From Neobacillus sp. PS3-34 (GTDB taxonomy: Bacteria; Bacillota; Bacilli; Bacillales; Cytobacillaceae): DNA of 64,000 bases. Shown here piece after piece: positions 36,213-57,076 of this stretch; the first letter of the stretch is position 1, and each line of letters begins with the position of its first letter. The stretch is from the NCBI RefSeq assembly GCF_030915465.1, contig NZ_CP133267.1:3771001-3835000 (forward strand), read 5' to 3'. A program made the translations under genes and the position numbers. Under the pieces are notes generated by a model. The model was not told the origin of the DNA. It saw only the letters and a list, made by a program, of their open reading frames with translations, and searched no databases.

Positions 36213-36295
36213 GATTATCCCCCTGGAAAATTTGAAATTAATCGTAATTTAACAATAATGGATAATTTTACATTTGTAAACGCATTCTTGTTCAT

Positions 36296-36325
36296 TTTTG
36301 TTTAGTTTTGTTAAGTTTTGTTGAG
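36296..36325. repeat. Three tandem 10-bp repeats in the tupA-tupB divergent promoter region
   Basis: TTTTGTTTAG, TTTTGTTAAG and TTTTGTTGAG follow one another without a gap, differing only at position 8. One repeat per helical turn on the same face is typical of a cooperative regulator site. They lie upstream of the tupB promoter. Confidence 0.7.
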
Positions 36326-36339
36326 TGGTGATATTTTCC

Positions 36340-54263: not shown

Positions 54264-54291
54264 ACATTGATTAAGCATTGGGGTGGTTTTG

Positions 54292-54900
54292 GTGAGTAAA
54301 TACCTCCATGAAAAGGCACTAACATTTTTAATGAAGTCTTTTCCATTTTCGGAGAGAGATCTTCACTTTAGGAATTCTATTGAGGAAGTGGATTATCTCT
54401 TTTTAACAAAAGAAGAAGCTGAGATTTTAACGAATATTTATTTTGAATTAAAAGACTTATATTTAAGAAAGTTAATCCTTAAGAATTTATCTCGCTGTAA
54501 AGAAATTCAACTAGAAGAATTCTTTTTAAAGGCCTATAAAAAGGAACGCTACTTGGATATTAGACTGACTGCAATCCGCGGGTATGCAAGATTTGCTTCA
54601 CATAAAGAAGTAGAAAAGGTCATGCAGAATTTCATGAAGATTCTTATTAAAAGACAGGAAAATACCCCTAATAATTATCAGGAATATGCATTCTTGCTTT
54701 CCCCTGCCGGGCTTCCATATTTAATAAAAAAGTATGGATACGATTGCTTTCAAATTGTTTATGAGCAAGCTAAAGTTCAATATGATGCTATGGAAGAACA
54801 GTATAAAAACCGCTTAACCTATGACGAAGAAGGCAATGCAATTACTATAACTAAAGGCATGAGAAATGCAATAAAAAAAGAAGACAGAAATAAGTTATGA
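54292..54900 (+). CDS. Unknown helical protein, HEAT-repeat-like
   Basis: 202 residues, GTG 54292 after GGGGTGG. Highly charged and alpha-helical. The middle (LYLRKLILKNLSRC, FLKAYKKERYLDIRLTAIRGYARFASHKEVEKVM) has the spacing of HEAT/Arm helices. The C-terminus is basic. I recognise no family. It opens the AT-rich cassette that lies between yqjQ and yqzH, immediately upstream of the receptor gene, but it has its own start signals and a 185-bp gap follows. Confidence 0.65.
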   Translation: MSKYLHEKALTFLMKSFPFSERDLHFRNSIEEVDYLFLTKEEAEILTNIYFELKDLYLRKLILKNLSRCKEIQLEEFFLKAYKKERYLDIRLTAIRGYARFASHKEVEKVMQNFMKILIKRQENTPNNYQEYAFLLSPAGLPYLIKKYGYDCFQIVYEQAKVQYDAMEEQYKNRLTYDEEGNAITITKGMRNAIKKEDRNKL

Positions 54901-55085: not shown

Positions 55086-55982
55086 ATGAGTGATACATAC
55101 GTAAATATCGGAGAAATCCTTCATTCATTGAGAGTTTATAAGGGCTTGGAGATAAACGAACTTGCCGATAACATTTGTTCCGTTGAGGAACTTGCTTTAA
55201 TTGAAAAAAATAAACAAGATCCAACTATTGACCAGCTTTTTAGATTCGCTGAAAAGTTAAATGTTAAATTAGGGGATTTTTTTGATTTGGCTTCAGCAGG
55301 TTCGGTTAATTATGTGTCTGCAGTCAGCGATCTGATTAAAAAATACAAAAGAGAACGAAATTATTATGCCATCAATGAAATTGTCCAAAGAGAGAAGGAA
55401 AATCCTTTATTTAATTTTCCTTCCAGCAGACAATTCCTGCTCTGGCATGAAGCGATATGTTTGTACTATTTATCTGAATCAGAACAAAGAGATAAAGAGT
55501 ACTCAATCCAGATGCTTAACGAAGCAATTAATATTACAAATCCTTTAGGAAAAGGCCTGACCGAACGGGAAATTGAAATTAAAATGGCTGTAGCATTGAT
55601 TGAAAAAGACGCTCAAAACTTTGAAACTGCCATTACGATTTTAAAAGAAATTTTAGAAGATATGGACACGCTTCCTGGATTAACGGATTCCCATGTCCGG
55701 CTTCGGGCTTTGTTTGGTTTATCGCAGTCACTTTCAAGAATTGGTAAATATGAAGAATCGTTGGTTTATAGTGAAAAAGGGATAGAGCAATGCATTAACG
55801 ATGAAGTATTATATCTGCTTGGTGAGTTTTTATACCAGGCTGGTTTGAATTATGAAAACGTTGGTGACTTAATCATGGGTCGGGAGTATTTCACGAAATC
55901 ACTTCAAGTCTTTGATCTACAAAAAAATGAAATTTTAGGAAATATAGTAAAAGCTGATTTGGAAAATCTATCAAAACTATGA
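55086..55982 (+). CDS. PlcR-like (RRNPP) quorum-sensing receptor/regulator
   Basis: 298 residues, ATG 55086 behind AAAGGAG. Residues 8-66 form an XRE-type helix-turn-helix (GEILHSLRVYKGLEINELAD, then EELALIEKNKQDPTIDQLFRFAEKLNVKLGDFF). Residues 75-298 are helical pairs of TPR type (LIKKYKRERNYYAINEIVQ, FLLWHEAICLYYL, ALFGLSQSLSRIGKYEESLVYSEKGI, GEFLYQAGLNYENVGDLIMGREYF). Size and layout match PlcR. Receptors of this class bind a re-imported short peptide in the TPR concave face, which changes DNA binding. The secreted repeat peptide gene follows after 45 bp with no terminator between, which strongly supports a receptor-signal pair. Confidence 0.88.
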   Translation: MSDTYVNIGEILHSLRVYKGLEINELADNICSVEELALIEKNKQDPTIDQLFRFAEKLNVKLGDFFDLASAGSVNYVSAVSDLIKKYKRERNYYAINEIVQREKENPLFNFPSSRQFLLWHEAICLYYLSESEQRDKEYSIQMLNEAINITNPLGKGLTEREIEIKMAVALIEKDAQNFETAITILKEILEDMDTLPGLTDSHVRLRALFGLSQSLSRIGKYEESLVYSEKGIEQCINDEVLYLLGEFLYQAGLNYENVGDLIMGREYFTKSLQVFDLQKNEILGNIVKADLENLSKL

Positions 55983-56027
55983 TAATATTAACATAATAAA
56001 AATCTTTCTAAAAAGGAGATATGAAGA

Positions 56028-56519
56028 ATGAAAAAAACTCTACTTGTATCTGCTCTTGCAATTGGTGTCTTGGGAGCAGCTAGTTCTTTCGGAGTGAAGG
56101 ATGTTAAACTAGCTGAAATGCCAACGCAACACAGTGTGAATCCGGGAGTTCAGCTTGCTGAAATGCCAACGCAACACAGTGTAAATCCGGGAGTTCAGCT
56201 TGCTGAAATGCCAACGCAACATAGTGTAAATCCGGGAGTTCAGCTTGCTGAAATGCCAACGCAACACAGTTTGAATCCGGGAGTTCAGCTTGCTGAAATG
56301 CCAACACAACACAGTGTAAATCCGGGAGTTCAGCTTGCCGAAATGCCAACACAACACAGTGTAAATCCGGGAGTTCAGCTTGCCGAAATGCCAACGCAAC
56401 ACAGTGTAGATCCGGGAGTTCAGCTTGCCGAAATGCCAACGCAACACAGTGTAGATCCGGGAGTTCAGCTTGCTGAAATGCCAACCCAGCACAGTATTAC
56501 ACCTGATTTATTAGCATAA
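56028..56519 (+). CDS. Secreted precursor with nine tandem copies of a putative signal peptide
   Basis: 163 residues, ATG 56028 behind AAAAGGAGAT. Residues 1-22 are a Sec signal peptide (KKTLLVSALAIGVLGAASS). From residue 28 a 15-residue unit LAEMPTQHSVNPGVQ repeats eight times and is followed by a ninth, shorter copy ending SITPDLLA. LAEMPTQHS is invariant in all nine copies, while the spacer varies (V to L in copy 4, N to D in copies 7 and 8, V-N to I-T in copy 9). Organisation and context suggest export followed by proteolysis to many identical short signals for the upstream receptor. Alternatively it could be a repeat-rich secreted or surface protein, but nothing else supports that. Confidence 0.85.
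   Translation: MKKTLLVSALAIGVLGAASSFGVKDVKLAEMPTQHSVNPGVQLAEMPTQHSVNPGVQLAEMPTQHSVNPGVQLAEMPTQHSLNPGVQLAEMPTQHSVNPGVQLAEMPTQHSVNPGVQLAEMPTQHSVDPGVQLAEMPTQHSVDPGVQLAEMPTQHSITPDLLA
56109..56468 (+). repeat. 45-bp tandem repeat array, eight full units plus a partial ninth
   Basis: Eight in-frame 45-bp units, differing by only a few bases (GCT/GCC, ACG/ACA, GTG/GTA, AAT/GAT), encode the repeat peptide; a partial ninth unit runs to 56516. The near identity suggests recent expansion or ongoing homogenisation. Confidence 0.95.
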
Positions 56520-56528
56520 AGAAAAGGG

Positions 56529-56562
56529 ACGCTGTATCTATAAAATGGATTCAGCGTTTTTT
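56529..56562 (+). terminator. Terminator after the repeat precursor gene
   Basis: ACGCTG / CAGCGT stem (extended by ATC / GAT) followed by TTTTTT; it ends the receptor-precursor operon. Confidence 0.8.
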
Positions 56563-56686
56563 AAAACACCCCTTTATGCCCATCTTATTGCGTGATAAGA
56601 ATGAGCCATATTTACCTAGAAAAATTTGTAAAAAAGGATTATTCTTTAATTTGTAATAGTACGGATTAGCGGAAGGGGTATACAGG

Positions 56687-57076
56687 TTGGCGAATATCCA
56701 TGAGAAATATTGTCCGAATTGTTTGAATTTAATTTTTAATAAAAAAGATTTTCAAGAAAAAATTGCTTCATTAAAGAATACACTCTTGTCTAATAGAGAA
56801 GATTTTTTACCTAGTGTAGAAGAATTTTTACTTTTACAGAATGCCCCGCTTGATTTGATCATGGGAGTTCGCAAGACAATATTGGACGAATTAAACAGGA
56901 AGACAATAAATAGTGTTGATGTAATGAAAAAAACGACTCAGGCAATTCATTTTAAAAAATGTTGTTTTTCATGCGGTTATTTGGTTGCGGAACATGAAGT
57001 TAGTACCCTCCATAAAAAGAAATTTTTTGGACTGGGGCTTGGAAGGTTTCTTAGATTCGGAAAAGCGAATTACTAA
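56687..57076 (+). CDS. Small zinc-ribbon-like protein of unknown function
   Basis: 129 residues, TTG start 56687 after GGAAGGGG. Two Cys pairs, YCPNCLN near residue 10 and CCFSCGY near residue 95, could make one zinc site bracketing a helical middle. The C-terminus is basic. No family recognised. It has its own terminator at 57094-57127. An inverted repeat TCTTAT-N6-ATAAGA at 56583-56600 lies upstream and could be a regulator site, so this gene is a possible target of the quorum-sensing pair. Confidence 0.6.
   Translation: MANIHEKYCPNCLNLIFNKKDFQEKIASLKNTLLSNREDFLPSVEEFLLLQNAPLDLIMGVRKTILDELNRKTINSVDVMKKTTQAIHFKKCCFSCGYLVAEHEVSTLHKKKFFGLGLGRFLRFGKANY

What the first reader, a model, noticed from the sequence alone, without database searches (positions are those of the whole stretch)
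55086..56519. RRNPP receptor paired with a nine-copy tandem-repeat signal precursor
A PlcR-like HTH-TPR regulator is followed after 45 bp, without a terminator, by a Sec-secreted protein that is little more than nine tandem copies of a 15-residue unit. Known RRNPP signals (PapR, NprX, most Phr and AimP) come from precursors with one or at most a few copies. A nine-copy precursor would work like yeast alpha-factor, raising signal yield per translation and changing the dose response. The invariant LAEMPTQHS core and the variable spacer are what would be expected if the core is the mature signal. I know the family rules, but I cannot exclude that a similar multi-copy system is already published.
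Basis: partly seen in the sequence, partly recalled or inferred. Interest (0 to 1): 0.95.

Follow-up and report, generated by a model that had tools for sequence, protein, structure and literature searches.

The report
Nine-copy bacterial pheromone precursor gene
Beside a gene for a predicted peptide-sensing regulator, this bacterium carries a gene for a likely secreted protein that repeats one probable signal peptide nine times, and its relatives carry arrays of 2 to 16 copies, so copy number would set how much signal each precursor yields.

Summary
A PlcR-like HTH-TPR regulator (55086-55982) is followed after 45 bp by a 163-aa precursor (56028-56519) with nine 15-residue units. Comparative evidence makes this a likely RRNPPA quorum-sensing pair. 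All 78 distinct relatives scoring at least 335 bits have a motif-bearing precursor downstream (77 by script, one by eye); a near-identical criterion finds 77 of 78 there, 1 of 78 on the opposite strand, 0 upstream, 0 of 780 shuffles. The core, (A)EMPTQH here and x[LIMYF]Px[QE]H in most relatives, lies in register with PapR7 (ADLPFEF); single-copy relatives end exactly at that His. Among copies within 59 arrays the core has pN/pS 0.023 against 0.50 in flanks, so each copy appears to be kept by selection. Copy number runs from 1 to 16 in 81 complete precursors. Not supported: that multi-copy precursors are new. Up to six and up to eight copies are in print, and two-copy Phr precursors have been shown to be processed. 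New, as far as my searches show, are a clade in which multi-copy is the rule, and arrays above eight copies. Peptide release, binding, output and targets are untested; two AlphaFold fusions gave no docking.

The parts
55086..55982 (+). PlcR-like receptor/regulator, 298 aa: N-terminal HTH, TPR-type C-terminal domain
55983..56027 (+). 45-bp gap with a ribosome-binding-site-like AAGGAG and no terminator found; receptor and precursor are probably one transcript
   Evidence: sequence; terminator scan; co-transcription itself untested
56028..56519 (+). predicted signal precursor, 163 aa
   Evidence: ORF; same gene order in 78 of 78 related receptors
56028..56093 (+). predicted Sec signal peptide (MKK, then a hydrophobic stretch); cleavage site not determined
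   Evidence: sequence and a hydropathy filter; no SignalP available
56112..56492 (+). nine-copy array, 45-bp period. AEMPTQH core at 56112-56132, 56157-56177, 56202-56222, 56247-56267, 56292-56312, 56337-56357, 56382-56402, 56427-56447, 56472-56492
   Evidence: core EMPTQH: 36 synonymous and 0 non-synonymous differences over the 36 copy pairs, spacer: 27 and 19
56529..56562 (+). intrinsic-terminator-like hairpin and T-run that would end the two-gene unit
   Evidence: fold -17.5 kcal/mol for 56517-56575, z -4.1, 0 of 200 shuffles as good; missed by the simple scan
56687..57076 (+). 129-aa protein with two Cys pairs (CPxC ... CCFSCG), a conserved neighbour and candidate target gene; function unknown
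   Evidence: homologues downstream of the pair in three relatives (L007, L013/L107, L108) and beside it, on the other strand, in L114; in 193 genomes of the family, strong hits only in the window's genome and one other, both linked, and two weak hits not near the pair

Best explanation
The two genes are a likely quorum-sensing pair: a PlcR-like regulator and, 45 bp downstream, a predicted secreted precursor that carries nine copies of one probable PapR-type signal peptide, AEMPTQH. Inferred steps: the precursor would be exported by Sec, cut on both sides of each copy by extracellular proteases, and the freed peptide (heptapeptide, possibly with the following Ser) would re-enter through an oligopeptide permease and bind the TPR groove of the receptor, changing its DNA binding. 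One translation would then yield up to nine signals. Shown here: gene order, clade-wide linkage, register with PapR7, and a pattern of selection that keeps the core of each copy while the spacers drift. Untested: export, cleavage, binding, output and target genes.
For: (1) Linkage: all 78 distinct receptors with at least 335 bits, which are all such places, have a motif precursor downstream on the same strand: 77 by script (gap -7 to 158 bp), the 78th (L118, single-copy ...RLPNQH-stop, MKK start about 300 bp downstream) read by eye. Near-identical criterion in 700 bp: 77 of 78 downstream same strand (the miss has undetermined bases), 1 of 78 downstream opposite strand, 0 of 78 upstream on either strand, 0 of 780 shuffles. 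(2) Register: PapR7 is ADLPFEF, PapRa7 CSIPYEY, PapR pherotypes LPFE[FY], VP[FY]E[FY], MPFEF, LPFEH; here xEMPTQH, xDLPSQH, xGIPSEH and so on. In 45 of 81 systems with complete precursors the last copy ends at His-stop. In other orders, 8 of 12 new loci have a single-copy precursor ending LPFQH or LPYQH, a bridge to PapR; two lie downstream on the same strand, six upstream and divergent. (3) Selection: 59 arrays, 347 copies, core pN/pS 0.023, flanks 0.50. (4) Fold: PlcR is first by sequence profile and structure. (5) Receptor residues at the published PapR contacts differ with the signal: PlcR Q237 and K89 equivalents are charged (E/D; R) in 69 of 70 receptors with non-Glu position 6 and are N/S and W in 15 of 15 with Glu; the K197 equivalent, which meets the PapR C-terminus, is Lys in 42 of 45 His-stop systems and 2 of 36 with a tail, the best of 260 columns. 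(6) Ten oligopeptide-binding-protein (SBP_bac_5) matches in the genome.
Against: No experiment. The residue co-variation rests on 1 to 5 changes on the tree, and the sign tests are not significant (median p 0.5 for the K197 column, 1 for the other two). Two AlphaFold runs of natural read-through fusions left the precursor below or near pLDDT 50, so no docking is shown. Neither a PlcR box upstream of the receptor (0 of 24 loci) nor a clear excess of boxes in the genome (9 against 7 control matches) was found, so the regulon is unknown. Of 56 distinct weaker receptors looked at, only 8 have such a precursor downstream (one more, L127, has a candidate on the opposite strand), so the pairing is a rule for this clade, not for all RNPP_C proteins. 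Internal copies need a C-terminal cut that PapR does not need.
Confidence: 0.85

Rival explanations
1. Only one copy (the first or the last) is the real signal, and the array is neutral slippage of a repeat-prone gene.
For: Copy number differs between close relatives (for example 16 against 6 in L057 and L058, 12 against 6 in L005 and L029), as slippage would give. A few copies are altered (14 of 347 depart from the majority core).
Against: Cores of copies inside one array differ by synonymous changes (pS 0.53) but hardly by amino acid (pN 0.012), while flanks next to them change (pN 0.21). Neutral copies would lose the core as fast as the spacer. The 71-receptor clade is multi-copy throughout as far as its precursors can be read.
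Confidence: 0.07
2. The mature signal of this lineage carries residues beyond His (for example AEMPTQHS), and the receptor is tuned to that longer form.
For: In 33 tail-type arrays the residue after His is Ser in 157 of 193 internal copies with pN 0.061, between core and outer flank. Receptors of tail-type systems have mostly lost the lysine that meets the PapR C-terminus (2 of 36 keep it).
Against: His-stop relatives share the same core; Ser is replaced by Gly, Ala, Val, Ile or Thr in 36 of the 193 copies; few independent events.
Confidence: 0.3
3. The repeat protein is a secreted metal-binding (His-bearing) or structural protein that the neighbouring regulator controls, not a signal.
For: Each unit has one His; regulators are often next to their targets (general knowledge).
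Against: Single-copy forms keep just one C-terminal PapR-like heptapeptide, which could hardly act as a multivalent metal binder; the core is as in PapR and PapRa; Glu/Gln changes in the core go with changes at published PapR contacts in the receptor, though on few events.
Confidence: 0.04
4. The copies are read as two or more different messages (variant peptides), not as more of one message.
For: Published for some Phr precursors (PMC5199041, PMC11343458); some arrays here hold a variant core.
Against: In the window all nine cores are identical, and 333 of 347 copies carry the majority core of their array.
Confidence: 0.04

Closest known systems
PlcR/PapR of the Bacillus cereus group (and PlcRa/PapRa)
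   Same: HTH plus TPR receptor fold; signal register x-x-[LIMV]-P-x-[EQ]-[FYH]; adjacent secreted-type precursor. PapRa7 lies inside its precursor rather than at its end (PMC3519770), as the internal copies do here.
   Different: One heptapeptide per PapR precursor (45 aa in PMC3519770) against nine per 163 aa; papRa lies upstream of plcRa; no PlcR box upstream; contact residues K87, K89, K197, Q237 read R, R, R, E in the window.
Tandemly duplicated RRNPPA propeptides (Phr105, Phr3T; PLoS Biol 2024, PMC11343458; survey in mBio 2022, PMC9765709)
   Same: Several pheromones in one precursor; internal copies need two cuts. The two Phr105 copies are identical and separated by LKLA, much as copies here are preceded by ...VQLA or ...VELA.
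   Different: The two studied systems are phage Rap systems with two pheromones each; reported maxima are six (PMC9765709) and eight (cited in PMC11343458). Here 10 of 81 complete precursors have 9 to 16 and the receptor is PlcR-like.
NprR/NprX with repeated propeptides (PMC9765709, Table 3: 17 of 17 large ones)
   Same: DNA-binding RRNPPA receptor with repeated propeptide.
   Different: Different receptor subfamily and a different signal (NprX, recalled: SKPDIVG).
Yeast alpha-factor precursor (recalled)
   Same: One secreted polyprotein releases many identical pheromones.
   Different: Kex2/Ste13 processing and a surface GPCR (recalled); no sign of relation by descent was looked for.

Membership tests
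RRNPPA receptor-propeptide pair | Receptor of 250-500 aa with peptide-binding TPR domain (and HTH in transcriptional members) | tested here: met
   298 aa, RNPP_C over its cut-off, HTH_3 over its cut-off; PlcR first by structure
RRNPPA receptor-propeptide pair | Directly adjacent propeptide gene | tested here: met
   45 bp downstream, same strand; 78 of 78 relatives
RRNPPA receptor-propeptide pair | Propeptide secreted by Sec | tested here: inconclusive
   MKK plus hydrophobic stretch by sequence and hydropathy; no SignalP or experiment
RRNPPA receptor-propeptide pair | Small propeptide (10-100 aa in RRNPP_detector strict mode) | tested here: not met
   163 aa; the filter is given in PMC10075063. 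It is a search setting, not a biological rule; 50 to 120 aa is stated in PMC11343458
RRNPPA receptor-propeptide pair | Peptide binds the receptor and changes its activity | not testable with these tools
   needs biochemistry; fusion folds gave no confident docking
PlcR/PapR proper | PapR-type heptapeptide at the end of a one-copy precursor | tested here: not met
   nine copies, the last followed by SITPDLLA; met in the single-copy relatives
PlcR/PapR proper | PlcR box (TATGNAN4TNCATA) control | tested here: not met
   0 of 24 receptor upstream regions, the window's among them; 9 boxes in the genome against 7 for the control pattern
PlcR/PapR proper | PapR contacts K87, K89, K197, Q237, Y275 | tested here: inconclusive
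   window has R89, R91, R205, E247, about L284 by profile alignment: similar in kind for three, changed for two
Tandemly duplicated propeptides | Two or more copies of the pheromone, cores conserved above spacers | tested here: met
   nine copies; core against flank pN/pS 0.023 against 0.50
Tandemly duplicated propeptides | Internal copies matured by extracellular proteases | not testable with these tools
   shown for Phr105 in PMC11343458 section 10; not for this system

The most novel reading that the evidence does not exclude
A clade of PlcR-like systems has turned the PapR one-signal precursor into pheromone polyproteins whose copy number (2 to 16) is an evolvable gain dial for quorum sensing: slippage changes signal yield per translation quickly, selection holds every copy's core, and the receptor pocket changes with the signal, including the residue that reads the peptide's C-terminus when the last copy no longer ends the protein.
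Probability: 0.45. Interest if true: 0.75.

Novelty: new variant of a known kind. Interest (0 to 1): 0.6.

Why it matters
If true, it gives a natural series of 1 to 16 copies of closely related signals in one receptor lineage, so the question of what multi-copy pheromone precursors are for (dose, timing, protease gating) can be tested by comparing relatives or swapping arrays. It also shows that a size filter of 10-100 aa, as in a published survey tool, would miss the strongest cases: precursors of 29 of the 85 distinct receptors here are longer than 100 aa. The single-copy LPFQH/LPYQH forms place the B. cereus signal PapR within a wider peptide family.

Tried and rejected
Considered and rejected: chance repeat (TRF score 677, nine identical cores); antisense ORFs over the array (126/127 aa, artefacts of the repeat); neutral array (pN/pS); metal-binding repeat; control by a PlcR box. 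Weak library hits to the repeat (DUF6783, IS66 TnpA) have no stretch that passes on its own. Among the weak hits, L009 was read as another repetitive protein; L010 and L011 were not examined.

Led nowhere: protein search with the precursor gave 20 candidates and none at E 1e-3, perhaps because that search works by short exact words. Docking by natural fusion in AlphaFold. Upstream regions of the receptors gave no motif shared across the clade (by eye and a simple inverted-repeat scan of the window only). No receptor relative in phage records or viral contigs; 8 plasmid records, all below 60% identity; of the two of these that I opened, one has a two-copy precursor, the other no listed small gene next to the receptor. 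The pocket co-variation is reported as suggestive only: 1 to 5 changes on the tree. In one search the K197 column was first looked up one residue off; the scan in the same call and one search give the right column.

Literature seen: PMC9765709 (passages, section 7), PMC11343458 (abstract, section 10, passages), PMC10075063, PMC5199041, PMC3519770, PMC5007282, PMC6568020, PMC12700828 (passages only). Searches. No listed paper that I opened describes this clade, and no paper of the library holds any of six core strings. Subscription journals and supplements were not seen, so prior mention there cannot be excluded.

Full report
What is there. The window carries a 298-aa HTH-TPR regulator (55086-55982) and, 45 bp downstream on the same strand, a 163-aa protein (56028-56519) made of a signal-peptide-like start and nine 45-bp units. 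Every unit holds LAEMPTQHS; the rest of the unit varies slightly. A hairpin with a T-run follows the stop codon (56529-56562, z -4.1), and nothing terminator-like was found in the 45-bp gap, so a two-gene transcript is probable but untested. The receptor is the only RNPP_C protein found in the genome.

The family. The receptor profile was run on 193 genomes of the window's family (99 with E at most 1e-30), 397 of its order (49 with E at most 1e-75) and 398 of its class (15 with E at most 1e-75). I fetched every place scoring at least 335 bits, plus part of the weaker ones. These give 78 distinct receptors at 335 bits or more. All have a small secreted-type precursor downstream with the motif x[LIYFMV]PxxH: 77 by script, with gaps of -7 to 158 bp, the last (L118) single-copy, about 300 bp downstream and read by eye. 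Among 56 distinct weaker receptors looked at, 8 have one, and L127 has a candidate on the opposite strand. A near-identical criterion applied within 700 bp found 77 of 78 on the downstream same strand (the miss has undetermined bases), 1 of 78 on the downstream opposite strand, 0 of 78 upstream on either strand and 0 of 780 shuffles.

Copy number. In 81 complete precursors the counts are 1 (13 precursors), 2 (9), 3 (11), 4 (15), 5 (6), 6 (10), 7 (5), 8 (2), 9 (3), 10 (4), 11 (1), 12 (1), 16 (1); copies with an altered core are not counted. On the receptor tree with PlcR as outgroup, 71 rows form a clade with 100/100 support in which all are multi-copy (one of these is cut by undetermined bases); of the 14 rows outside, 13 are single-copy and one has two. 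PlcR sits on a very long branch there and some outer rows are long too, so the order outside that clade is unsure. Copy number changes among close relatives (12 and 6 in L005 and L029; 16 and 6 in L057 and L058).

The signal. PapR7 is ADLPFEF and PapRa7 CSIPYEY (PMC3519770); the four PapR pherotypes end LPFE[FY], VP[FY]E[FY], MPFEF and LPFEH (PMC5007282). The family core aligns without gaps: A-E-M-P-T-Q-H in the window, A-D-L-P-S-Q-H, A-G-I-P-S-E-H, A-D-Y-P-S-Q-H elsewhere. In 45 of 81 systems the last copy ends at His followed by the stop, as PapR does at its own end. In other orders of the class, 8 of 12 newly fetched loci have a single-copy precursor ending LPFQH or LPYQH, between PapR and this family in sequence; two of these lie downstream on the same strand and six upstream and divergent, so gene order is not fixed outside the clade. 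I therefore predict AEMPTQH as the signal. In systems like the window's, where a tail follows every copy, Ser after His is common (157 of 193 internal copies) and fairly constrained (pN 0.061), so AEMPTQHS cannot be excluded.

Each copy is kept. Comparing the copies inside each of 59 arrays (347 copies), the six core codons show pS 0.529 and pN 0.012 (ratio 0.023), the neighbouring codons pS 0.416 and pN 0.208 (ratio 0.50). Copies were recognised by at least 4 of 6 identities to the majority core, which favours the core somewhat; 14 of 347 depart from it. Per array (an earlier, more restrictive count), the core had the lower pN in 38 of 50 arrays with comparable spacers and the higher in 4. 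In the window itself the core has 36 synonymous and no non-synonymous differences over 36 copy pairs, the spacer 27 and 19. Recent duplication alone would not give this contrast.

Receptor and signal change together, but few times. Published PlcR contacts of the PapR glutamate are K89, Q237 and Y275 (PMC6568020), and K197 meets the PapR C-terminus (PMC5007282). By profile alignment these are R91, E247, about L284 and R205 of the window's receptor. The 237 position is E or D in 69 of 70 receptors whose signal has no Glu at position 6, and N or S in 15 of 15 with Glu; the 89 position is R in 69 of 70 and W in 15 of 15. The 197 position is K in 42 of 45 His-stop systems and in 2 of 36 tail systems, the strongest of 260 columns (phi 0.88). 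The tree shows only one change for the first two columns and five for the third; independent-pair tests are not significant, and in the one system that went back from Glu to Gln (L076) the receptor residues did not follow. I treat this as suggestive.

What was not shown. Two AlphaFold jobs on natural read-through chains (receptor plus precursor) gave good receptors and low-confidence precursors: no docking evidence either way. No operator was found. A 129-aa protein with two Cys pairs lies downstream of the pair in the window and in L007, L013/L107 and L108, and beside the pair in L114; in 193 genomes of the family only two, the window's own and one relative's, have a strong hit, both linked, so it is a candidate target.

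How new. Multi-copy precursors are published: six copies at most in AimR, NprR, PlcR and Rap systems, 3 of 15 large PlcR propeptides repeated (PMC9765709), up to eight copies cited in PMC11343458, where both copies of Phr105 were shown to be matured, the internal one with WprA. New, as far as nine searches of an open-access library show, are a clade with multi-copy as the rule, arrays of 9 to 16 copies (10 of 81), and the measurement that selection holds the copies' cores. A conservation plot for two Phr families, with pheromones more conserved than the regions between, is in print (PMC11343458), so the last point extends a known trend.

Noticed in passing
56687-57076 (+): 129-aa protein of unknown family with CPxC ... 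CCFSCG, conserved next to the pair in several relatives.
   Followed up: partly
54283-54900 (+): 205-aa protein without Pfam match above cut-off directly upstream of the receptor; no homologue in the fetched loci of relatives, which reach only some 0.4 to 4 kb upstream.
   Followed up: no
L146:2489-3563 (Cytobacillus oceanisediminis plasmid NZ_CP062791.1): Plasmid-borne pair with a two-copy precursor (AGYPTQH ... LGYPTQH-stop) annotated as hypothetical protein; shows the system can sit on plasmids.
   Followed up: partly
L149-L153, L155, L157, L159 (other orders of the class): Single-copy precursors ending LPFQH or LPYQH, a bridge between PapR (LPFEF, LPFEH) and this family; six of eight are upstream of and divergent from the receptor.
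   Followed up: partly
L057:408-1776: Array of 16 GLPTQH cores, about half of them joined to the next without any spacer (...GLPTQHGLPTQHG...), which would limit the mature peptide to about six or seven residues there.
   Followed up: no
G019, G093, G097 (L044-L046): A second, more distant receptor gene lies divergently next to the GIPSEH pair in several genomes; a possible paralogue sharing the same signal.
   Followed up: no
36288-36326: Short 10/20-bp tandem repeat (TTGTTCAGTT), score 50-57.
   Followed up: no
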